A stretch of DNA of 32,453 bases from an uncultured Bacteroides sp. (GCA_945865495.1 CAMBEF010000005.1:1-32453), one strand, 5' to 3'; positions 19,319 to 29,609 are shown, counted from the first letter of the stretch. Numbers and translations: made by a program. Notes: generated by a model from the letters alone, not told the origin.

Positions 19319-19954
19319 TTAATGCATACCATACACCAGCGCATTACATATCGCCGCCGCGACATTACTTCCGCCCTTACGCCCCCGGTTCACAATATGC
19401 GGAACATCACTCTGTATGATAAGCTCTTTGGCTGCCTCCACATTAACAAAACCTACAGGAACACCGATTATGAAAGCAGGCGTGAATACTTCCTCCTGCA
19501 TCATCTCATGCAGACTTATAAGTGCCGTAGGTGCGTTGCCAATTGCAAATATCACCGGCCTGTTAAGGGCTGCTGCCCTCTCCATGCTTACCGTTGCTCT
19601 GGTAACACCTCTGCTTTTTGCCTCAGCCGCCACATCTTCATCCGCCATAAAGCAATGTACCTCTCCTCCATATCCGGCAAGGCGTTTCTTGTTAATTCCC
19701 GCCTTTGCCATGTTGGTATCCGTAACTATGTGTGCGCCGTTCTTTATGAGATTTCTTGCCTTTTCAACTGCATTTTCCGAATATACCAGAGTATCAGCAT
19801 AATCAAAATCTGCTGTCGTGTGAATAACCCTTTTCGTCACCGGCTCCTGCACCGCATCAAGGACTATTCCACGCTGCTCAAGCTCTCTTCCTATAATCTC
19901 AAAGCTGCGCTTTTCTATCTCATCCGGTCTGACATATTCTATGTGTGTATTCAT
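19319..19954 (-). CDS. cbiC: Precorrin-8X / cobalt-precorrin-8 methylmutase CbiC
   Basis: RVIHTTADFDYADTLVYS, IVTDTNMAKAGINK, AIGNAPTALISLHEMM, GVPVGFVNVEAAKE. Confidence 0.96.
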   Translation of the reverse strand: MNTHIEYVRPDEIEKRSFEIIGRELEQRGIVLDAVQEPVTKRVIHTTADFDYADTLVYSENAVEKARNLIKNGAHIVTDTNMAKAGINKKRLAGYGGEVHCFMADEDVAAEAKSRGVTRATVSMERAAALNRPVIFAIGNAPTALISLHEMMQEEVFTPAFIIGVPVGFVNVEAAKELIIQSDVPHIVNRGRKGGSNVAAAICNALVYGMH

Positions 19955-19975
19955 GTAAAGCTCCTTAAAATGTTA

Positions 19976-20950
19976 TTAATTGAGATACTTTATATTCTCC
20001 CCTGTCACAAGCGGATACTTCACTATATCTGTGCCATCAAGATTCTCTTTATGCATATCGACTGCCGTTATCTGATGATTCTCATATGTTGTGTAGTAAT
20101 ATATGCCCTTGTCCGCATTACAGCATGATGTGTAGAGCGTTATCTCGTACTTGCCGTCTGCCACTTCACAACAGCCTCTCTGCTGGTCTACGCTGTTAAG
20201 GATATGGAAGAACTGGCTTACGCTCTCATTCTCGGATGTTCCTGACTTAGAGTTCATCTTTACAAATGCCACTCTTGCAAATCGTGATTCTGACGAAAGG
20301 TCTCCCGGAAGTCCGATAGCACCCATACCACGGCTGTATGTGCAGAGTGAAAGCCTGTCCGAAAAATTACATTCCGGCTGCTTCGGAGAAAGCTTCATAT
20401 AGTTATTGAGCTGGAACATCTGCAATGGAAACGGTGGATTGTTGGTAAGCACTCCGACAGGATTATCGTACACATGAAGTCCGTCTGTCATCGACTCAAC
20501 AGTTACAGCCTCATTCTTATCTGCAATTATCCAGTGAAGCTGCGCCGAAGGAAGCTGTTCGCTGAACGGTGTACCTACAAGATTCATTCCTGCAAGCTTC
20601 TGCCTTGCCTCACTTACACTGGCACACTGTGCAAGTATCCATGGGATGAATTCATACTGTGCAACATTCCAGACGCCATCCTTTACATCCGCATACACCG
20701 CGTTGCCTACAAAGTTAAGTCCTGCCATTCCAAGACCCTTTTCATTAATTGCATCATAATAAAGCGGATACGTCCCGGCTACATGAGCCATTCCGATTAT
20801 CGCATAATGATTGTCGAGTTCTCCCATATGTCTGAATGTGAATTTGTAATTACGAGGTGTTATTGTTACATCATCCCCATATGAAAATTCATAATCAAGC
20901 GTCCTTCCAAAATAAAAATCTTCTGTCTTATACGTTGCTGCCGTACACAT
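19976..20950 (-). CDS. bsh: Choloylglycine hydrolase / bile salt hydrolase
   Basis: MCTAATY (Cys2), YFGRTLDYEFSYGDDVTITPR, NEKGLGMAGLNFVG, DNPVGVLTNNPPF, YSRGMGAIGLPGDLSSESRFARVAF, SVSQFFHILNSVDQQRG; RBS GGAGG before ATG 20950. Confidence 0.95.
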   Translation of the reverse strand: MCTAATYKTEDFYFGRTLDYEFSYGDDVTITPRNYKFTFRHMGELDNHYAIIGMAHVAGTYPLYYDAINEKGLGMAGLNFVGNAVYADVKDGVWNVAQYEFIPWILAQCASVSEARQKLAGMNLVGTPFSEQLPSAQLHWIIADKNEAVTVESMTDGLHVYDNPVGVLTNNPPFPLQMFQLNNYMKLSPKQPECNFSDRLSLCTYSRGMGAIGLPGDLSSESRFARVAFVKMNSKSGTSENESVSQFFHILNSVDQQRGCCEVADGKYEITLYTSCCNADKGIYYYTTYENHQITAVDMHKENLDGTDIVKYPLVTGENIKYLN

Positions 20951-21002
20951 ATCTGCCTCCATTTCTGCATATTAATCCAGGTTCCTGAACGCTGAATATA
21001 GA

Positions 21003-24000
21003 TTAATATGACTTAACACTCTTAAAATACTGAATCAGTATGTCTTTTATATAATTATATCGTCTGGCATAGGAATTTTCCACTCTTATAAGTTCAAAAC
21101 CATGCCTGCGGCATATCTCGTTTTTCTTGGCATCTCTCTGCATGACGATATCATTTTCCTGATGCTCTTTGCCGTCCAGCTCTATTGCAAGAATCGGAAT
21201 ATCCGTCCCCTTATATTCCTGCTCATATACAACAAAGTCAAATCTTCCGCTGTAAAACAGGTCATTATACTCAGTATTACCGTCAAATACATGTGCAATA
21301 CTTACTTCACGCTGCACAACGCACTTACGGTTGGTATTAAGGACGTTATCCAGCGCATGATTAAGCGTAGTGAGAAATGCTGCCTCCGTCTGTGTGCTGT
21401 ACGGCTTGATGCCGAGCGCCCTTGACGAATTCTCCCTTGGCGTAACCTGCGACTCTCCGTTGCTCTTTACATAACTGACAAGCTCGTATATATCATCCTG
21501 ACCTTCGCTGTGAAGCCTCTCAAGCTCACGGCTGTTGGACAGCACGATTAGCTGCTCCCTTGCCCTTGATGTTGCCACATTTATAAGCTCCCTGTTATTC
21601 TTAAGCCATTCATAAGTGCAGTGGGCTGTATTCGGTGTAAGTGCAAGTGAAAACAGCACAACATCCTTCTCATCTCCCTGAAATGCATGCACAGTTCCGC
21701 ACGTAACATTGCCGATGCCGTTTTTCTTAAGCTCCTCGTTAATCAGCTCCTTCTGGTTGGCAAACGGTGTTATTACTCCTATGCTTTTATCACTGTTTTT
21801 AAGCGCATACTTAACAATCTCCTCAGCCTCCCGCGGTGCCGTATTTCTGTAATATGACGCATCGTCCTCTACATCCATGAATACAAGCGGCTTTTCCTGC
21901 GTGCTTTTACTGTCTATCACAAGCTTGCCATTGTAATATTTTTTATTATTGAATTCTATTATCTTCCGGTTGCATCTGTAATGGTGGCTCAGAAGAATCT
22001 CCTCACTCACGGCATCGCATGCCAGATATGTCTTGTAGATTGAATTCTTAATGTAATCATATTCGTCCGTAATTCCGTAAGCCTTCCTGAGTGCCGCATT
22101 GTCGATAGGATTCAGCAGTATGACAGGACTTAGCTGCTGCGGATCACCTACAAGTGTAAGATTTCTGCCGCGGATAATCGGAATAAGTGACATTGCAATA
22201 TTGCCCTGACTTGCCTCGTCCATTATCACCATATCAAAATATGTGCCGGGACTTCCAAGCTTATGTGCAGATATTGATGTTGTCGCTATTATTGGAAATA
22301 TCTTCTGAAATTTTTTAAGATTTTCCTCTTTGTTAAGATAAGCATTGAACTGCTTTACCTTTTCAGCTTTATCATCACAGTATATTATCTTCAGCAGATC
22401 TTCATTCTTTGGCTCACTAAGCTTTTTGATATATCTGGCAGAGGTATAATAAAGATATTTTTTAAATTCATCCTCATCCTCCATAACAAGCTGCAAAGCC
22501 TCTTCGTCCGTTACCTCTCCTATATCTGCAAGTTTCTTTTTTACTGTCTGCAGCTGAACGCCATACAACTGCGTCTGAAATGCAAGATGCCTGTTAACCT
22601 CCATCAGCTTCTCTATTGCCTCTTCACGCTCCAGAAGCTCAAGCCTCTTCTCATGGCGGTGAAGAAGCGCCGTCAGCCGCTTTGTATTTTCAATCTTATC
22701 ATCCCTGTTGCGCTCTAGTGTGCTGTCATATATTCTTATCGGATTGGTCTGCTCATACAGCCTTTTCATATCTTCAAGCGCCTTAAGCACCATCTCATCA
22801 TTGCCAAGCCTTATAACCGGAAATGGAATCATTCCCTTGTTATGATACGCAATATTCTTTAATTTCTCGCATACGCCGTCTATCGGATGATTATTGTATG
22901 ATGCAAAGAGCACCGTCTTATCATTAAAAAATGCAGTTACAAGCGTGTTAACAATTGTGTTGGTCTTGCCCGTTCCCGGCGGCCCCTGTATATATGCAAG
23001 CGGATATTTCATTGAATTATGTATTGCAAGGAGCTGGTCAAGATTAATCTTCCTGTCAAGAAGCGTTATCGGATAGTCCTTTCGCCTGTCTACCTGTTTT
23101 AGGAGTTCCCCAAAGAATGCCTTTATCGGAATCGTAACTCTGTCCTCGCGGTACATCTCACTGATTGCGGCATATTCCTCATGAAGATCCAATATGTTAT
23201 TGCGCCCTATTGCAATAAGATAAGGCATATCGTCAACACCGTTTATCTGTGGATTGGAAGCTGTTATTCTGTCCTTAATAAGCTCCTCATTCCTGTCAAA
23301 ATCCTTCAGCAGCTCATAATCATCAGCATCTAAGAAACGATGGATGCTGCATTTGCTCTCAGGTCTGTCCTTATCCAGCACAAATTCTGTACATATCGTG
23401 ACCTCTTCATCCTGACGCAGCGTTCTTGCGGCAACATCAAGCCTGAGTTTCCTGTATGCAAGCACATACAGCCCTTTTGGCATATGAATACTTATTACAT
23501 TTATTGCAAGCTGCTTTATATTGCGGTTCATTCCGCCATGCTTTGCCGCATACTGAAAGTTATTTACAATCTGCCCGAACTGCCCTTCATTAAGCTTCAT
23601 GCTTCCCGTCCACTCTCTGTCGAGATGGTCAATCAGTGCGTAGTCAGTCTTATAAGGCGTTGAATCAAGCCTGTTACAGTCTGCCAGATAATTAAGTATC
23701 TTAAGATTGGCTGCGTTATCAAATATACTCTTATACTTAACCGGATTAATGCAGATATCCTCTATGAGCTTTTCATTTACATCAAAATAAGAGCCATCAA
23801 GCACTGATGATGACAATATTGAGTCTATATAAATCTTAAGTTCTAAGGTTGTCAGCCTTGCGAGGTGCAGTCCCTGAACCTTCATTGACCTGTCACTTGT
23901 GTCAATGTTCATAATCCCTATCCAGTACTTTGTCACCTCATCCTGACCATTCCGGTATTCAATACTGAGCCACTTGCCCTCATGAATTGCACGGAATATA

Positions 24001-24020
24001 TCGCGGCATACTGTATTCAT
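21003..24020 (-). CDS. WYL-like N-domain + SF1 (Upf1/Dna2-like) helicase + PD-(D/E)XK nuclease-like C-domain
   Basis: N-terminus IFRAIHEGKWLSIEYRNGQDEVTKYWIGI; Walker A GPPGTGKT; VIMDEASQ; GDPQQLSPV; INVATSRAREQLIVLSN; C-terminal FDFVVYEQ...ILAIELDGKEHQ...KNEICRRHGFELIRVEN. AGGAGAG before ATG 24020. Confidence 0.88.
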   Translation of the reverse strand: MNTVCRDIFRAIHEGKWLSIEYRNGQDEVTKYWIGIMNIDTSDRSMKVQGLHLARLTTLELKIYIDSILSSSVLDGSYFDVNEKLIEDICINPVKYKSIFDNAANLKILNYLADCNRLDSTPYKTDYALIDHLDREWTGSMKLNEGQFGQIVNNFQYAAKHGGMNRNIKQLAINVISIHMPKGLYVLAYRKLRLDVAARTLRQDEEVTICTEFVLDKDRPESKCSIHRFLDADDYELLKDFDRNEELIKDRITASNPQINGVDDMPYLIAIGRNNILDLHEEYAAISEMYREDRVTIPIKAFFGELLKQVDRRKDYPITLLDRKINLDQLLAIHNSMKYPLAYIQGPPGTGKTNTIVNTLVTAFFNDKTVLFASYNNHPIDGVCEKLKNIAYHNKGMIPFPVIRLGNDEMVLKALEDMKRLYEQTNPIRIYDSTLERNRDDKIENTKRLTALLHRHEKRLELLEREEAIEKLMEVNRHLAFQTQLYGVQLQTVKKKLADIGEVTDEEALQLVMEDEDEFKKYLYYTSARYIKKLSEPKNEDLLKIIYCDDKAEKVKQFNAYLNKEENLKKFQKIFPIIATTSISAHKLGSPGTYFDMVIMDEASQGNIAMSLIPIIRGRNLTLVGDPQQLSPVILLNPIDNAALRKAYGITDEYDYIKNSIYKTYLACDAVSEEILLSHHYRCNRKIIEFNNKKYYNGKLVIDSKSTQEKPLVFMDVEDDASYYRNTAPREAEEIVKYALKNSDKSIGVITPFANQKELINEELKKNGIGNVTCGTVHAFQGDEKDVVLFSLALTPNTAHCTYEWLKNNRELINVATSRAREQLIVLSNSRELERLHSEGQDDIYELVSYVKSNGESQVTPRENSSRALGIKPYSTQTEAAFLTTLNHALDNVLNTNRKCVVQREVSIAHVFDGNTEYNDLFYSGRFDFVVYEQEYKGTDIPILAIELDGKEHQENDIVMQRDAKKNEICRRHGFELIRVENSYARRYNYIKDILIQYFKSVKSY

Positions 24021-24045
24021 GGCTGTCTCTCCTGATGTAATGGTG

Positions 24046-25353
24046 TCAGATAAATGCAATCATATATAGTGGCAGTGTGATTATTCCATCTTCGCTCACT
24101 CCTGTGTTGCCGTCAACAAACTTATACCCATAAGGGATATCTTTATTATTCTTTAAAAGCGCTTTTAGTGAATTAGCCCGCGTATTCCCGCTCTTTACCT
24201 CAATCGGTATAACTTTTCCGTCTTGTTGGATAATAACATCTATTTCTCTTTTAGTTGTCTCATTTTTATAAAAATATAACCGGTACCCTTTCTTAAAAAG
24301 AGCATCTGCTACTGCACATTCAAATATTCCGCCCTTTGTGCTGCCTGCCAAAGTATTTTCAACAATATGCTGTTTTAATGAAAGGTCCTTCATTGCCATA
24401 AGCAGTGATAAATCTGTTGTGTATGCCCTGAAAAAATCATCTCTGGAATAATCATCCAGATCAAATCTTACATCTGTCACAAGTCTGGATAAATGTACCA
24501 TATCTGCACGAAGCAGCCACTCAATACTTGAATAATATTTTTGTGCTCTTCCGCCATGCTCGACTTCTTTATATTGAAATTTATGATTCTCTTTATCAAG
24601 CAACTGCTTTGCAACCGAAAGGTAACATTTTTCAGCTTTCACCTTCTCTTCGGCAGTTGCATAGTGTGCTATGTCATACTGATATCCCTGTAACAGACTA
24701 CGCTGCAGCCTGTCAACTTCCCTGAAATCCCTTGTATCTATATACTTCTGCACCACCTCCGGCATGCCGCCTGTTGCAATATACTGCCTGTAATAATTCA
24801 TCATACTTGAATTAATTGCTTGCGGTATGACCGTCTTTGAAGCCATATATCTGCGCAGATTATCTATCATATCTTCTGCAATTCCCATCCCCCAAAGGAA
24901 CTCTTCAAAATCCAAGCCATACATTCTCATATAATCAACATACCCAACAGGATAAGAAGATGCACGTTTATAATCAATTCCAAGAAGTGAACCTGATGCA
25001 ATAACGTCAAACCTGTTGTCTATTGCCCAGAATTTAAGTGATGTTATTGCTTCCTGACACTCCTGTATCTCATCTAAAAAAATTAAAGTTTTCCCCGGTA
25101 TTATTTTCTTTTCAGGAAAACGGAAACGCATAGCCATAACCATGTTTTCTACAGTGAGATCACCGGCAAAAATATCCACCGCTGAAATCATCTGCTTAAA
25201 ATTTATTTCAACCAGTTCCTCATAATTTTCTTCTGCAAACCGCTCAATTATATATGTTTTCCCTGTTTGTCTCGCTCCCTGGACAACAAGGCATTTCTTC
25301 TCCTTGGTGTCAGCCCAACTTTTTATAAATGCTGTTGCTTTTCTTTTTAACAT
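24046..25353 (-). CDS. AAA ATPase with DUF4143-type C-terminal domain
   Basis: GARQTGKT, TLIFLDEIQECQEAITSLKFWA, VIASGSLLGI, REIDVIIQQDGKVIPIEVKSG; GAGGTGA before ATG 25353. Confidence 0.92.
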   Translation of the reverse strand: MLKRKATAFIKSWADTKEKKCLVVQGARQTGKTYIIERFAEENYEELVEINFKQMISAVDIFAGDLTVENMVMAMRFRFPEKKIIPGKTLIFLDEIQECQEAITSLKFWAIDNRFDVIASGSLLGIDYKRASSYPVGYVDYMRMYGLDFEEFLWGMGIAEDMIDNLRRYMASKTVIPQAINSSMMNYYRQYIATGGMPEVVQKYIDTRDFREVDRLQRSLLQGYQYDIAHYATAEEKVKAEKCYLSVAKQLLDKENHKFQYKEVEHGGRAQKYYSSIEWLLRADMVHLSRLVTDVRFDLDDYSRDDFFRAYTTDLSLLMAMKDLSLKQHIVENTLAGSTKGGIFECAVADALFKKGYRLYFYKNETTKREIDVIIQQDGKVIPIEVKSGNTRANSLKALLKNNKDIPYGYKFVDGNTGVSEDGIITLPLYMIAFI

Positions 25354-25402
25354 AAAACACGTCACCTCATATCAACAAATAAAATGCAGCAAACGTAATA
25401 TA

Positions 25403-25484
25403 TCGACATTTTGGAATGTTAAAATGTATTCTAGATCAACATTTTGGAATGTTAAAACATTTACTATGTCAACATTTTAGAAAA
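25403..25484. repeat. Operator-like repeat array, 33-bp period
   Basis: TCGACATTTTGGAATGTTAAAA (25403-25424), TCAACATTTTGGAATGTTAAAA (25436-25457), partial TCAACATTTTAGAAAA (25469-25484), with AACATT/AATGTT inverted arms. Confidence 0.85.
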
Positions 25485-25496
25485 TTATATCACCGA

Positions 25497-27431
25497 TTAA
25501 AATGCATTTAAAGTAGTCACTGCTCCCGGATGCTCAGTTACAAATGCTTCTATCGCATCCATAAATCTCTGCCCGTACCGTTCATACTTGCTTGCTCCAA
25601 CACCCGATACATCAAGCATTGCGTCACTGTCCTTCGGAAGCCTGATGCACATGTCGGCGAGCGTCTTGTCACTGAACACAATATAAGGAGGGACTGACTC
25701 TTCCCTCGCAATCTCAAGTCTTAGCTGTCTCAGCTTTTCAAACAGCTCATAGCCTGCTGCCGTAAGGGAATCTTTGCTGCCACGCGCCTTACTGCCGGAA
25801 GACTTTCCTGTTGTACGTCTTCCTGTCCTTACTGTGCTGCCTCTGCTTTCACCCTTTGTGTCATAATAAAGCTGCTCAGGAGTCTTCTCATGCTTTCTTA
25901 TGACCACTCTTGCAGCTTCGCTGCGAAGAGGCTCTATATTCCCAATTCTCAGGACACTGTACTGCTCCTGTGTCTGATAAATGTATCCCAGCTGTATCAT
26001 CCGGCTTATGAGCAGCCTAATATCAGCCTCACTCATATCCTTAAGCACGCCATATGACCTGTACCCGGTTGTTCCAAGCTCTCTGAGCCTTGCACGGTCA
26101 GCCCCCATAAGCGTTCCGATAACTATTGTAAGCCCATATCGGCCATGCGTCTCGGCAATACAGTTGATAACCCATCTTGCTTCATCCGTCATATCGTACT
26201 CCGTGTAAGCCTGATTGCAGTTTCCGCAATTATTGCACGGTTCACCCGTATTCTCCCCAAAATACCGCAGTATATAATTGCGCAGGCATTCCGTTGTCCG
26301 GCAGTAATTCTCCATAACACGCAGTCTGTACATATCACGCTGCTTTATCAGTTCAATGTCTTCCATATCCGTATCACTGAAATCCTTACTTTCAAGAAGC
26401 ATCCTGTTTATTACGATATCCTGCGGTGAAAAAAGAAGGATACACTCCGCAGGCTCTCCGTCTCTTCCCGCTCTTCCGGCTTCCTGATAGTAGTTTTCCA
26501 TACTCTGTGGCATATTATAGTGGATTACAAAACGCACATCAGGTTTGTCTATACCCATTCCGAATGCGTTGGTCGCAACAATTACATCAACCCTGTCATA
26601 TATAAAATCATCCTGATTATTCTTTCTTTGCTCCGTGCCAAGCCCGGCATGATATTCCGAAGCCCGTATTCCTTCACTCTTCAGAAGCTCACATACTGCA
26701 TCCGTGTTCTTCCTTGTAGCACAGTATATTATTCCGCTCTGGTCCGGATGTTCCTTTATATAATCAACGATAAATGCATCCTTTTCCCTTACCTGCTCAA
26801 CCCTGTAATAAAGATTCTGCCTGTCAAAGCCTGTTATGACAACTTTTGGAGCATTAAGGTTAAGTATGCACAGAATGTCATCCTTTACTTCCTTTGTCGC
26901 CGTTGCAGTAAACGCGCTGACAACAGGACGCTTCGGCAATCCATTTACAAAATCAAGTATCTTAAGATATGCCGGTCTGAAATCCTGTCCCCACTGAGAT
27001 ATACAGTGCGCCTCATCTATCGTCACCATTGATATATGAGTGCTCCTTACAAATGCATTGAACTCATACCCGCCAAGCCTCTCCGGCGCAACATATATTA
27101 TCTTATATGTTCCCTGGGAAGCGAGGAAAAGTGCTTTGGATATCTGGCTCTCCGTAAGTGAAGAATTGATATATGCCGCATGGATTCCCGCCTCATTCAG
27201 TGCCTTAACCTGATCCTGCATAAGCGATATGAGCGGTGACACAACAATGGTTATTCCATCAAGCATCAACGCAGGAATCTGGTAGCATATGGACTTGCCT
27301 GCTCCTGTCGGCATTATTGCAAGCACATCACAGCCTTCAAGAATTGCATTCACCACTTCCTCCTGCCCGCCTCTGAAGGAATCATATCCAAAATAATGTT
27401 TGAGTGTTGATTTTGCGTCCATTGATAACAT
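25497..27431 (-). CDS. recQ: ATP-dependent DNA helicase RecQ
   Basis: FGYDSFRGGQEEVVNAIL, IMPTGAGKSICYQIPAL, TIDEAHCISQWGQDFRP, QEAGRAGRDGEPAECILLF, zinc-binding Cys cluster, C-terminal HRDC-like domain. Confidence 0.97.
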   Translation of the reverse strand: MLSMDAKSTLKHYFGYDSFRGGQEEVVNAILEGCDVLAIMPTGAGKSICYQIPALMLDGITIVVSPLISLMQDQVKALNEAGIHAAYINSSLTESQISKALFLASQGTYKIIYVAPERLGGYEFNAFVRSTHISMVTIDEAHCISQWGQDFRPAYLKILDFVNGLPKRPVVSAFTATATKEVKDDILCILNLNAPKVVITGFDRQNLYYRVEQVREKDAFIVDYIKEHPDQSGIIYCATRKNTDAVCELLKSEGIRASEYHAGLGTEQRKNNQDDFIYDRVDVIVATNAFGMGIDKPDVRFVIHYNMPQSMENYYQEAGRAGRDGEPAECILLFSPQDIVINRMLLESKDFSDTDMEDIELIKQRDMYRLRVMENYCRTTECLRNYILRYFGENTGEPCNNCGNCNQAYTEYDMTDEARWVINCIAETHGRYGLTIVIGTLMGADRARLRELGTTGYRSYGVLKDMSEADIRLLISRMIQLGYIYQTQEQYSVLRIGNIEPLRSEAARVVIRKHEKTPEQLYYDTKGESRGSTVRTGRRTTGKSSGSKARGSKDSLTAAGYELFEKLRQLRLEIAREESVPPYIVFSDKTLADMCIRLPKDSDAMLDVSGVGASKYERYGQRFMDAIEAFVTEHPGAVTTLNAF

Positions 27432-27434
27432 AGT

Positions 27435-27516
27435 TATAACTGTAACCTTTCTTTATATGATGCCTGGGCAAAAGCCCACCGGCTTCGATGCCTGCGGCTT
27501 TCTTACGCCCATTATA
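27435..27516 (-). promoter_or_regulatory. Possible structured recQ leader with upstream -10 box
   Basis: On minus TATAAT (27516-27511), then GGGCGTAAG, TGGGCTTTTGCCCA hairpin (27465-27478), and CAGGCATC twice (27487-27494, 27459-27466). Confidence 0.35.
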
Positions 27517-27616
27517 CCATATATTTAACAGTTACGTCATCATAAAGCAGGCTACCTGCGTATTGGTAGAATATTTGTTTTATGATATCATATAACATAG
27601 TTATATTTTATAATCC

Positions 27617-27799
27617 GTGATACCCCCATATTGTGTTGGCGGAAGCTTTGGCATGAAAGATAAGCTCAAAATGATTGCCAAACTTATGGCAATATGTTAT
27701 AAAGATGCTAATTGTATTGAGATTGAAGGCTATGATATTCCTGCACCAAAGGCATCACGGGCATTTTCAAAGAAGAATCTTTTCGGCATCCCTGATTGA
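27617..27799 (+). pseudogene. Short ORF, possible C-terminal remnant of a larger protein
   Basis: GTG-initiated 60 aa ORF, in-frame stop just upstream (27611-27613), no convincing RBS, protein-like composition. Confidence 0.35.
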
Positions 27800-27851
27800 C
27801 TGCTTTGCTTTAAGTTAAACATTAAAGATTACCATTTATGCACCTGATATT

Positions 27852-28448
27852 TTACTGATTTCTCACATACTTTGTGTTATATCCATGGTTCTCTGCAGGA
27901 CGCAGGTCATTCGGATACATCGTGTCTGAATAGATATTCTCCTGAAGTTCACGGACAAGCTGGAATACTTTTTCATATTCTTCTATGTTGGCTATATTCA
28001 TGCCCGCATGTCCATGGCACTCACTTACGACATCCCCTGTATGGCATATTCTGTCAAACACGCCAAGGTTGAGTGAAACATGTGACAAATCCGTAAATGG
28101 CTTCATCTCAACTCTCTTTGATATTATGCCGGTCTGTATGTATATTCCCTTATCAGTAATCAGATATTCCGTATTCTTAGCTTTCATTGCAGAAGTTATC
28201 ACACCTCCAATATAAAGCCATACAGGCATGAGATGCAGAAGGAAAAACGGCACCAGTATAAATGCCATTGAGTCACCGAATCCTCCGCCAAAAGCTGACA
28301 ATCCTATAAATCCTGCATCAAATGCAAGCCAGATTAATGCAAAAGGAAGCATTGGATTAAATATTGCCTCCAGCACCGACACTTTCACTGACTTCTTGCC
28401 ATTCCACAACACCGCCTCGCCGCGGCTTATCTGATCCCTTAAATTCAT
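27852..28448 (-). CDS. PH-domain membrane protein (bacterial PH type)
   Basis: Two TM helices then NTEYLITDKGIYIQTGIISKRVEMKPFTDLSHVSLNLGVFDRI; GGAGAG before ATG 28448. Confidence 0.8.
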   Translation of the reverse strand: MNLRDQISRGEAVLWNGKKSVKVSVLEAIFNPMLPFALIWLAFDAGFIGLSAFGGGFGDSMAFILVPFFLLHLMPVWLYIGGVITSAMKAKNTEYLITDKGIYIQTGIISKRVEMKPFTDLSHVSLNLGVFDRICHTGDVVSECHGHAGMNIANIEEYEKVFQLVRELQENIYSDTMYPNDLRPAENHGYNTKYVRNQ

Positions 28449-28592
28449 TTCTTCTCTCCTATTCTTATTCTGCCGGTGTACAAAATGGTATACATCGGTC
28501 CGATTAATATTATACAAATTACATTATACACCAAAAGAATTTATTTTTGTATATTAATCCACAATCTGAGTCTTAATCTACGCCTTAATTTA

Positions 28593-29609
28593 TCACTTTT
28601 TACCACGCACACGTGTTGAAACCACTGATGTAAGCGGAACCATATTTATATCAACCGTTCCATCACACTTCAAAGTAATCAGCGTTCCTCCTCTCTGTAC
28701 ATGCTGCCTGTCTATACCTCTATATCCCAGACAGTCAATCGACATGCCGTACGTAAGCTGTATCCCCTTATAGATTAGTGACAGCGTATTAAGATGGTCA
28801 TGGCCGCAGAACATCCATTTTATCACGCCATTCTTTACCGCCTCTTCAAAAAAATGTCCTTCTCTGTTGGATATTCCAAAATACCCGTCCTTTTCTCCGA
28901 TGCTCCCATGGCAGTATATAACACTCCTGTCCCCAAGCTTCATCTTCTCATAAGCTTCCTTGAATTCGCGTGGAGGCATATGAAAAAAAGCCATGGCTCT
29001 TATATTCTTATTAACTGCCTTAAGTTCATCCAGTCTGTCCATGCACCACTTTGTCTGGTCATCATGTATACAGTCAAATCCACTGAAGAACCATCCGTCG
29101 CCATACATGTTGGAATCAAGCATAACAAGCGGAATGCGTACATTTCCGGAACCATCCATAAGATTAACGATGAAGTTGCCTGTTCCTGATATATCCGCAA
29201 TTCCTTTGGAGAAAATGCAGTATCTGCCCTTCATAAATATATCTGCAAGCTCATCCTTGCCGCACACTGCCCCCATCTCACAGTCATGATTACCGAATAC
29301 CATCGTATACGGAACTTCAAAACCGTCCATAAACTTAATGAATTGCTCTGCCTCGCGGCGGTTGTTCATTGTTCCGCTTTTTGGAAAAAACGGAAATATG
29401 GAATCCCCCGTAAGCACAATCAGATCAGGGCATACTCTTTTAATTATAGTACGCACAGCATCCTGTGCCATTCGGTCTTTTCTGCACGAGAATATTCCAT
29501 ATCCCAGATGCAGGTCTGTAAGCTGCAGTATCCGGTAATCCCTGTCATCAGGAATCTCAAGGCTGAATGTATCTTCATTATCCTGTCTGAATTGTTCAGA
29601 TGAATACAT
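28593..29609 (-). CDS. Calcineurin-like metallophosphoesterase
   Basis: LQLTDLHLGYG, DLIVLTGDSIF, MVFGNHDCE, WMFCGHDHLNT; RBS GGAGG. Confidence 0.94.
   Translation of the reverse strand: MYSSEQFRQDNEDTFSLEIPDDRDYRILQLTDLHLGYGIFSCRKDRMAQDAVRTIIKRVCPDLIVLTGDSIFPFFPKSGTMNNRREAEQFIKFMDGFEVPYTMVFGNHDCEMGAVCGKDELADIFMKGRYCIFSKGIADISGTGNFIVNLMDGSGNVRIPLVMLDSNMYGDGWFFSGFDCIHDDQTKWCMDRLDELKAVNKNIRAMAFFHMPPREFKEAYEKMKLGDRSVIYCHGSIGEKDGYFGISNREGHFFEEAVKNGVIKWMFCGHDHLNTLSLIYKGIQLTYGMSIDCLGYRGIDRQHVQRGGTLITLKCDGTVDINMVPLTSVVSTRVRGKK

What the first reader, a model, noticed from the sequence alone, without database searches (positions are those of the whole stretch)
21003..25497. Helicase-nuclease fusion paired with AAA/DUF4143 ATPase: candidate defence module
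The 1005-aa protein combines a WYL-like N-domain, an SF1 helicase with intact motifs, and a C-terminal PD-(D/E)XK-like domain (ELDGKEH). It lies 25 nt downstream of an AAA/DUF4143 ATPase with its own D...ExK-like motif, and recQ lies upstream on the same strand. Seen directly: motifs and spacing. Established: helicase-nuclease fusions and WYL domains recur in prokaryotic defence loci. Inferred: that the pair acts together or in defence. DUF4143 ATPases are common singletons, so the pairing may be incidental.
Basis: partly seen in the sequence, partly recalled or inferred. Interest (0 to 1): 0.65.

Follow-up and report, generated by a model that had tools for sequence, protein, structure and literature searches.

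The report
Lone helicase-nuclease beside repeat-promoter ATPase
A bacterial gene for a sensor-helicase-nuclease protein happens to sit next to an unrelated suspected phage-defence gene; the pair is a coincidence, but the second gene and many of its relatives across several bacterial phyla carry an evenly spaced array of short DNA repeats over their own promoter, which may be a first handle on how that very common suspected defence gene is controlled.

Summary
In detail: window 21003-24020 (-) encodes a 1005-aa protein with a WYL-fold N-terminus, an intact SF1 (Upf1/Dna2-like) helicase and a C-terminal PD-(D/E)XK nuclease (Pfam DUF2726), 25 nt downstream of an AAA_14/DUF4143 ATPase (24046-25353, -). 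The reading of the two as one defence module does not hold. None of 64 related helicase loci has a close relative of this ATPase as neighbour, none of 23 ATPase loci has the helicase, and their co-occurrence in 397 genomes of the family is at chance (p=0.43). In a sister genome the ATPase DNA is identical while the helicase has lost 2,090 bp. The helicase is a stand-alone, patchy accessory gene (34/397 genomes); its only recurrent neighbour is recQ (7 of 92 loci). The ATPase is PADLOC's candidate PDC-S01, very common and functionally unproven. New here: its promoter carries three copies of a 33-bp-spaced repeat, and 44 of 83 relatives (Bacillota, Bacteroidota, Pseudomonadota, Chlamydiota) have 32/33-bp-spaced arrays of lineage-specific sequence in the same place, against 4 of 324 control promoters (p about 4e-31). 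I infer that the ATPase binds these arrays and regulates itself. Defence by either gene is untested.

The parts
21003..24020 (-). WYL-SF1 helicase-DUF2726 nuclease fusion, 1005 aa
   Evidence: aligned with about 80 relatives over its whole length
23751..24020 (-). N-terminal WYL-fold (SH3/Sm-like barrel) domain, residues 1-90
   Evidence: AlphaFold model and Foldseek top matches BrxR, CapW, PafBC, DriD
21531..23048 (-). SF1 helicase core, residues 325-830
   Evidence: AAA_11, AAA_12; nearest solved structures by sequence Sen1, Dna2, Upf1/Nam7
21045..21395 (-). C-terminal PD-(D/E)XK nuclease domain (DUF2726), residues 876-992
   Evidence: Pfam above cut-off; conserved E879, D928, E947-x-D949; Foldseek EcoRI, VRR_NUC, AgeI, TnsA
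24046..25353 (-). AAA_14/DUF4143 ATPase of the PDC-S01 type, 435 aa
24895..25299 (-). AAA_14 ATPase domain of the ATPase
24187..24678 (-). DUF4143 domain (PD-(D/E)XK-like residues E344, E369, E384, K386)
25399..25482 (-). Phased repeat array: units at 25450-25482, 25417-25449 and (partial) 25399-25416, period 33 bp, core AAAATGTTGAT
   Evidence: family-wide arrays; unit not found elsewhere in the genome
25484..25512 (-). Predicted sigma-70 promoter of the ATPase (TTTAAA-17-TATAAT, extended -10), directly before the array
   Evidence: consensus match only
25497..27431 (-). recQ (context; the only gene that recurs next to this helicase elsewhere)

Best explanation
Two unrelated accessory genes lie side by side. 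(A) The helicase is a self-contained WYL-SF1-PD-(D/E)XK protein: the WYL domain is inferred to sense a nucleic-acid or nucleotide ligand, the Upf1/Dna2-like motor to translocate on single-stranded nucleic acid, and the C-terminal nuclease to cut what the motor exposes, most likely foreign or aberrant DNA. Architecture and catalytic residues are shown; ligand, substrate and biological role are inferred. (B) The ATPase is a PDC-S01-type AAA_14-DUF4143 protein whose promoter is covered or abutted by a 33-bp-period repeat array. Arrays with a 32/33-bp period but lineage-specific sequence recur over the promoters of its relatives in four phyla. The inferred mechanism is that ATPase subunits bind the repeats on nearly one face of the DNA, about three helical turns apart, and form an ordered assembly that controls their own transcription (autorepression until an invader or damage titrates or releases them). 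Array, position and conservation are shown; binding and function are inferred.
For: Pair not conserved: 0 of 64 helicase loci with a close ATPase relative next door, 0 of 23 ATPase loci with the helicase, co-occurrence 3 genomes against about 2 expected, p=0.43; the third shared genome, G101, has them on different contigs. In the sister genome G001 the ATPase gene is nucleotide-identical while the helicase has an exact 2,090-bp deletion, window 21530-23619. Helicase is patchy (34/397 genomes, 33/334 genera), with both terminal domains kept in about 80 full-length relatives. ATPase genes have no recurrent neighbours. Arrays: 44 of 83 distinct upstream regions against 4 of 324 intergenic controls, p about 4e-31; best lag in {32,33,64-66} in 56/83 against 21/324; for the first 52, shuffles give 0-1. 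Unsupervised motif core AAAAtgTGnA, log-likelihood 128 against 40 (shuffled) and 60 (control promoters). Of 30 arrays 11 span the best predicted promoter, 12 lie at or just upstream of its -35 box and 7 downstream of its -10 box. The window's unit occurs nowhere else in its genome.
Against: In the window the 25-nt gap suggests co-transcription, so a lineage-specific functional link cannot be excluded. RecQ recurs beside the helicase, which could mean DNA repair rather than defence. Homologs 33.5-38% identical to the ATPase mostly lack a detectable array (2 of 14 with score at least 10), and so do more distant DUF4143 paralogs in the same genome. There is no direct evidence that the ATPase binds the array. 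Promoter calls are consensus matches only.
Confidence: 0.7

Rival explanations
1. One reading: ATPase and helicase-nuclease form one two-gene defence module, the ATPase sensing or loading and the helicase-nuclease degrading invader DNA.
For: 25-nt gap, same strand, no terminator-like site between them; both combine an ATPase with a nuclease-like domain; ATPase is PADLOC candidate PDC-S01.
Against: Pair absent from all other loci examined from both sides; co-occurrence at chance; helicase gutted in sister genome G001 while the ATPase stays identical.
Confidence: 0.08
2. The helicase is a Dna2-like end-resection or repair factor that works with RecQ (as BLM/Sgs1 works with Dna2 in eukaryotes), not a defence protein.
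For: RecQ is the only recurrent neighbour: adjacent and co-directional in 7 of 92 loci, in both orders; genomes with the helicase have recQ more often (18/34 against 113/363, p=0.013); nearest solved relatives by sequence are Sen1, Dna2 and Upf1.
Against: Nearly half of the helicase genomes lack recQ at this threshold; only 8.6% of family genomes have the helicase; several of the RecQ-adjacent loci share other neighbours and may be one lineage; WYL domains are linked to defence regulation (PMC4012209).
Confidence: 0.2
3. The 33-bp arrays are not sites for the ATPase itself but for another regulator, or are relics of a mobile element in which the ATPase is the only gene.
For: Arrays sit at promoters of a patchily distributed gene with no fixed neighbours; the motif core is AT-rich and could suit a generic regulator.
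Against: Array sequence differs between ATPase lineages while the period is kept, and close ATPases share the unit; the unit occurs only at this promoter in its genome, so neither a regulon nor a second element end was seen.
Confidence: 0.25

Closest known systems
WYL-SF1 helicase fusions listed by Makarova et al. 2014 (PMC4012209)
   Same: WYL domain joined to a superfamily-1 helicase
   Different: That text lists WYL partners such as SF1 helicase and Mrr-like REase; this exact WYL-SF1-DUF2726 order was not in the passages read
Hhe (DUF4011-helicase-nuclease anti-phage protein) and PADLOC PDC-S37
   Same: SF1 helicase followed by a C-terminal nuclease-like region in one polypeptide
   Different: Matches cover only part of the models: Hhe 79 bits against a cut-off of 2000, PDC-S37 residues 590-980 only; no DUF4011 found
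Mokosh helicases MkoA/MkoC
   Same: Same Upf1-like helicase core (E=1e-50 to 1e-47)
   Different: Match limited to the helicase core and neighbouring stretches; this protein has WYL at the N-terminus and DUF2726 at the C-terminus
Dna2 / Upf1 / Sen1 SF1 helicases
   Same: Closest solved relatives by sequence; Dna2 also joins a PD-(D/E)XK nuclease to the helicase
   Different: Dna2 carries its nuclease N-terminally (own knowledge); here it is C-terminal, with a WYL domain in front
PDC-S01, AAA_14-DUF4143 ATPases (PMC12988326: fourth most common defence annotation in prokaryotes, candidates from guilt-by-embedding)
   Same: The window ATPase matches PADLOC PDC-S01 over its whole length (E=3e-136)
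   Different: Phased promoter arrays were not described in the passages read; function of the family is not demonstrated there
Autoregulated defence operons (BrxR, CapW) and plasmid iterons (own knowledge)
   Same: Repeated or palindromic sites at the promoter of the gene whose product (here presumably) binds them
   Different: Here the inferred binder is an ATPase-nuclease, not a wHTH-WYL regulator or a Rep protein, and the period is 32/33 bp

Membership tests
PDC-S01 (PADLOC candidate) | Whole-length match to a PDC-S01 profile | tested here: met
   PDLC04786, E=3.4e-136, residues 1-433 on profile 3-431 of 439
PDC-S01 (PADLOC candidate) | Anti-phage activity | not testable with these tools
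WYL-domain proteins | WYL fold | tested here: met
   Foldseek: all 14 best matches are WYL proteins, probability 0.96-1.00, E 3e-3 to 1e-2
WYL-domain proteins | Match to a WYL sequence profile | tested here: not met
   No WYL family among Pfam matches at E up to 0.1; the assignment rests on fold alone
SF1 helicases, Upf1/Dna2-like | AAA_11 and AAA_12 with intact motifs | tested here: met
DUF2726 / PD-(D/E)XK nucleases | Profile above cut-off and conserved acidic residues | tested here: met
   33.3 bits against 24.7; E879, D928, E947, D949 conserved; REase-fold matches
Hhe anti-phage protein | NCBIfam NF042953 above its cut-off | tested here: not met
   79 bits against 2000
Mokosh | Whole-length MkoA or MkoC match | tested here: not met
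   Best match covers profile 632-1100 of 1112
Two-gene defence system (ATPase + helicase) | Conserved gene neighbourhood | tested here: not met
RecQ-linked repair pair | Conserved adjacency of recQ and the helicase | tested here: inconclusive
   7 of 92 loci adjacent; more than two random genes would be, but a minority

The most novel reading that the evidence does not exclude
PDC-S01 ATPases, among the commonest suspected defence genes of prokaryotes, are one-gene units made of an ATPase-nuclease plus a phased array of its own binding sites. The protein assembles as an ordered oligomer on sites spaced 32/33 bp apart at its promoter, the site sequence drifts together with the protein while the spacing stays fixed, and loss of the assembly (for example by titration onto invading DNA) switches the gene on.
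Probability: 0.45. Interest if true: 0.72.

Novelty: new variant of a known kind. Interest (0 to 1): 0.5.

Why it matters
The proposed helicase-ATPase defence module can be set aside. The by-product is more useful: PDC-S01 is annotated tens of thousands of times (29,494 in bacteria and 9,986 in archaea, PMC12988326) with no demonstrated mechanism in the papers read. A promoter array with conserved spacing but changing sequence, present in four phyla, gives a direct and cheap test of what the ATPase binds and how it is regulated, and a sequence feature that could sharpen annotation of functional members. The helicase adds a stand-alone WYL-SF1-nuclease family with about 80 full-length relatives and RecQ as its only recurrent neighbour, testable as defence or repair.

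Tried and rejected
Helicase-ATPase pairing searched from both sides: rejected. Phage and plasmid collections for the helicase: no record where one place covers 80% of it (best coverage among rows shown 53%). Defence-island test of helicase neighbours: PADLOC hits among 120 near and 120 far neighbours are of similar extent and mostly generic (RecQ read as DpdF; a few TIR, N6_Mtase, RhuM/PDC-S05), so no clear enrichment. Viral contigs for the ATPase: none confirmed. PDB sequence search for the ATPase: only a weak UPF0102 match. Upstream-ORF reading of the 33-bp repeats (33 = 11 codons): rejected, because several arrays have a 32-bp period and the window copy runs into a stop. The array as part of a regulon: rejected for the window's unit, found only at this promoter. 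Literature: DUF4143 occurs in one paper of the open library, PF13173/PF13635 in one, a combined search for upstream repeats gave none; subscription journals are not covered, so the novelty of the array is unproven.

Full report
Observation. The helicase is 21003-24020 (-), 1005 aa from ATG; the ATPase is 24046-25353 (-), 435 aa from ATG; 25 nt separate them; recQ (25497-27431, -) lies upstream.

Helicase. Pfam gives AAA_11, AAA_12 and, above its cut-off, DUF2726, which Anantharaman et al. 2013 call a REase-fold DNase (PMC3710099). In 80 aligned sequences the helicase motifs and the nuclease residues E879, D928, E947, D949, E952, H953 are near-invariant. An AlphaFold model of residues 1-329 (mean pLDDT 72; residues 1-100 at 79-94) has WYL proteins as its best PDB matches: BrxR, CapW, PafBC, then DriD, with probability about 1 but E only 3e-3. 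A model of residues 838-1005 finds restriction-enzyme folds (EcoRI, VRR_NUC, AgeI, TnsA), weak by E-value (0.025 and up) but consistent. WYL fusions to SF1 helicases were listed in 2014 (PMC4012209), so the architecture is a new member of a known kind.

Distribution. 34 of 397 sampled genomes of the family carry the helicase (one of them the broken copy), spread over 33 of 334 genera; named relatives come from Lachnospiraceae, Ruminococcus, Treponema and Atopobiaceae among others. It is accessory. In the one sister genome with the locus (G001), the helicase has lost exactly window 21530-23619, leaving its N- and C-terminal ends at about 97% DNA identity. A second congener, G002, has neither gene.

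The pair. Of 64 fetched helicase loci none has a close ATPase relative adjacent; one (L032) has a 27%-identical DUF4143-type ATPase two genes away on the other strand. Among 23 ATPase-bearing genomes of the family three also have the helicase (the window's genome, the sister, and G101 on different contigs), as expected by chance. The module hypothesis is therefore not supported. RecQ is the only gene that recurs directly beside the helicase: 7 of 92 loci, co-directional, six with recQ downstream and one upstream. Presence of recQ and of the helicase is weakly associated (p=0.013, not corrected for relatedness). A Dna2-RecQ-like role is a fair rival to defence. PADLOC scans of near and far neighbours show no clear defence-island signal.

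The ATPase and its promoter. The ATPase matches PADLOC PDC-S01 over its length. PDC-S01 is reported as the fourth most common defence annotation in prokaryotes, a candidate found by guilt-by-embedding, with an ATPase fused to a PD-(D/E)XK-type domain (PMC12988326). Between recQ and the ATPase lies a repeat array, 25399-25482, with units TTCTAAAATGTTGACATAGTAAATGTTTTAACA, TTCCAAAATGTTGATCTAGAATACATTTTAACA and TTCCAAAATGTCGATATA... spaced 33 bp. It begins next to a predicted -10 box. The unit occurs nowhere else in the genome.

Family-wide array. The same kind of unit recurs upstream of ATPases 58-86% identical. More distant ATPases carry other units with the same spacing, for example TTTTTCTATAGAAAAAT, ATTCGTGGGGAAAATCTGCA, GGGCATATAAATCTGTAA, and so does a paralog in the window's own genome, at 32 bp (L005). 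After adding 20 further genomic loci and 12 plasmid loci (Bacillota, Fusobacteriota, Bacteroidota, Pseudomonadota, Chlamydiota), 44 of 83 distinct upstream regions have a strong 32/33-bp repeat against 4 of 324 intergenic controls (p about 4e-31), and 56 of 83 against 21 of 324 have 32, 33 or 64-66 as their best lag. The Fusobacterium example lacks it. Homologs in the 33.5-38% band mostly lack it (2 of 14), so it is not universal. An unsupervised motif search finds the core AAAAtgTGnA. Caveats: the controls come from Firmicutes-rich helicase loci, the ATPase sequences are related to each other, and the threshold was set after first seeing the pattern in close relatives; the phylum-level and plasmid loci were tested afterwards with the lags already fixed.

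Mechanism. 32/33 bp is about three turns of B-DNA, so successive sites lie on nearly the same face. With fixed spacing, changing sequence, promoter position and restriction to one gene, the simplest inference is that the ATPase binds its own array cooperatively and regulates itself. Whether it then acts on invading DNA is unknown.

Recombination note. A 1,460-bp tract (23926-25385) covering the whole ATPase gene is identical between the window and G001 while the flanks differ by 3-4%. Recent recombination between the two species is likely; other low-divergence tracts occur nearby (19944-20900, 27460-28750), so it is not unique. The window comes from a 280-contig assembly, so chimerism cannot be excluded.

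Verdict. Observation confirmed; module interpretation rejected; domain reading accepted; a conserved phased promoter array of PDC-S01 ATPases is the finding worth pursuing.

Noticed in passing
window 25399-25482 and upstream of ATPase homologs L146-L236: 32/33-bp phased repeat arrays over the promoters of PDC-S01-type ATPases in several phyla; followed up and made part of the report.
   Followed up: yes
window 23926-25385 against G001 (L113): 1,460-bp tract spanning the ATPase gene is nucleotide-identical between two congeners whose flanks differ by 3-4%: recent recombination tract or assembly chimerism.
   Followed up: partly
window 21530-23619, absent in L113: Exact 2,090-bp deletion removes most of the helicase in a sister genome; almost no homology at the junction.
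   Followed up: yes
L028, L032, L049, L052, L119, L139, L140: recQ immediately adjacent to the WYL-helicase-nuclease gene, same strand, in seven loci and in both orders.
   Followed up: partly
L202: Another DUF4143 gene of the same genome has an upstream repeat of 76-bp period (score 30.5), not 32/33.
   Followed up: no
L005 / L199: A paralogous ATPase (39% identical) in the window's genome has a three-copy 32-bp array (AAAGTGGCTCATGAAAATGTAAAAATTATAAA) before its start.
   Followed up: partly
window 19976-20962: Choloylglycine (bile salt) hydrolase gene directly after the helicase, 99.5% identical in G001, absent from G002.
   Followed up: no
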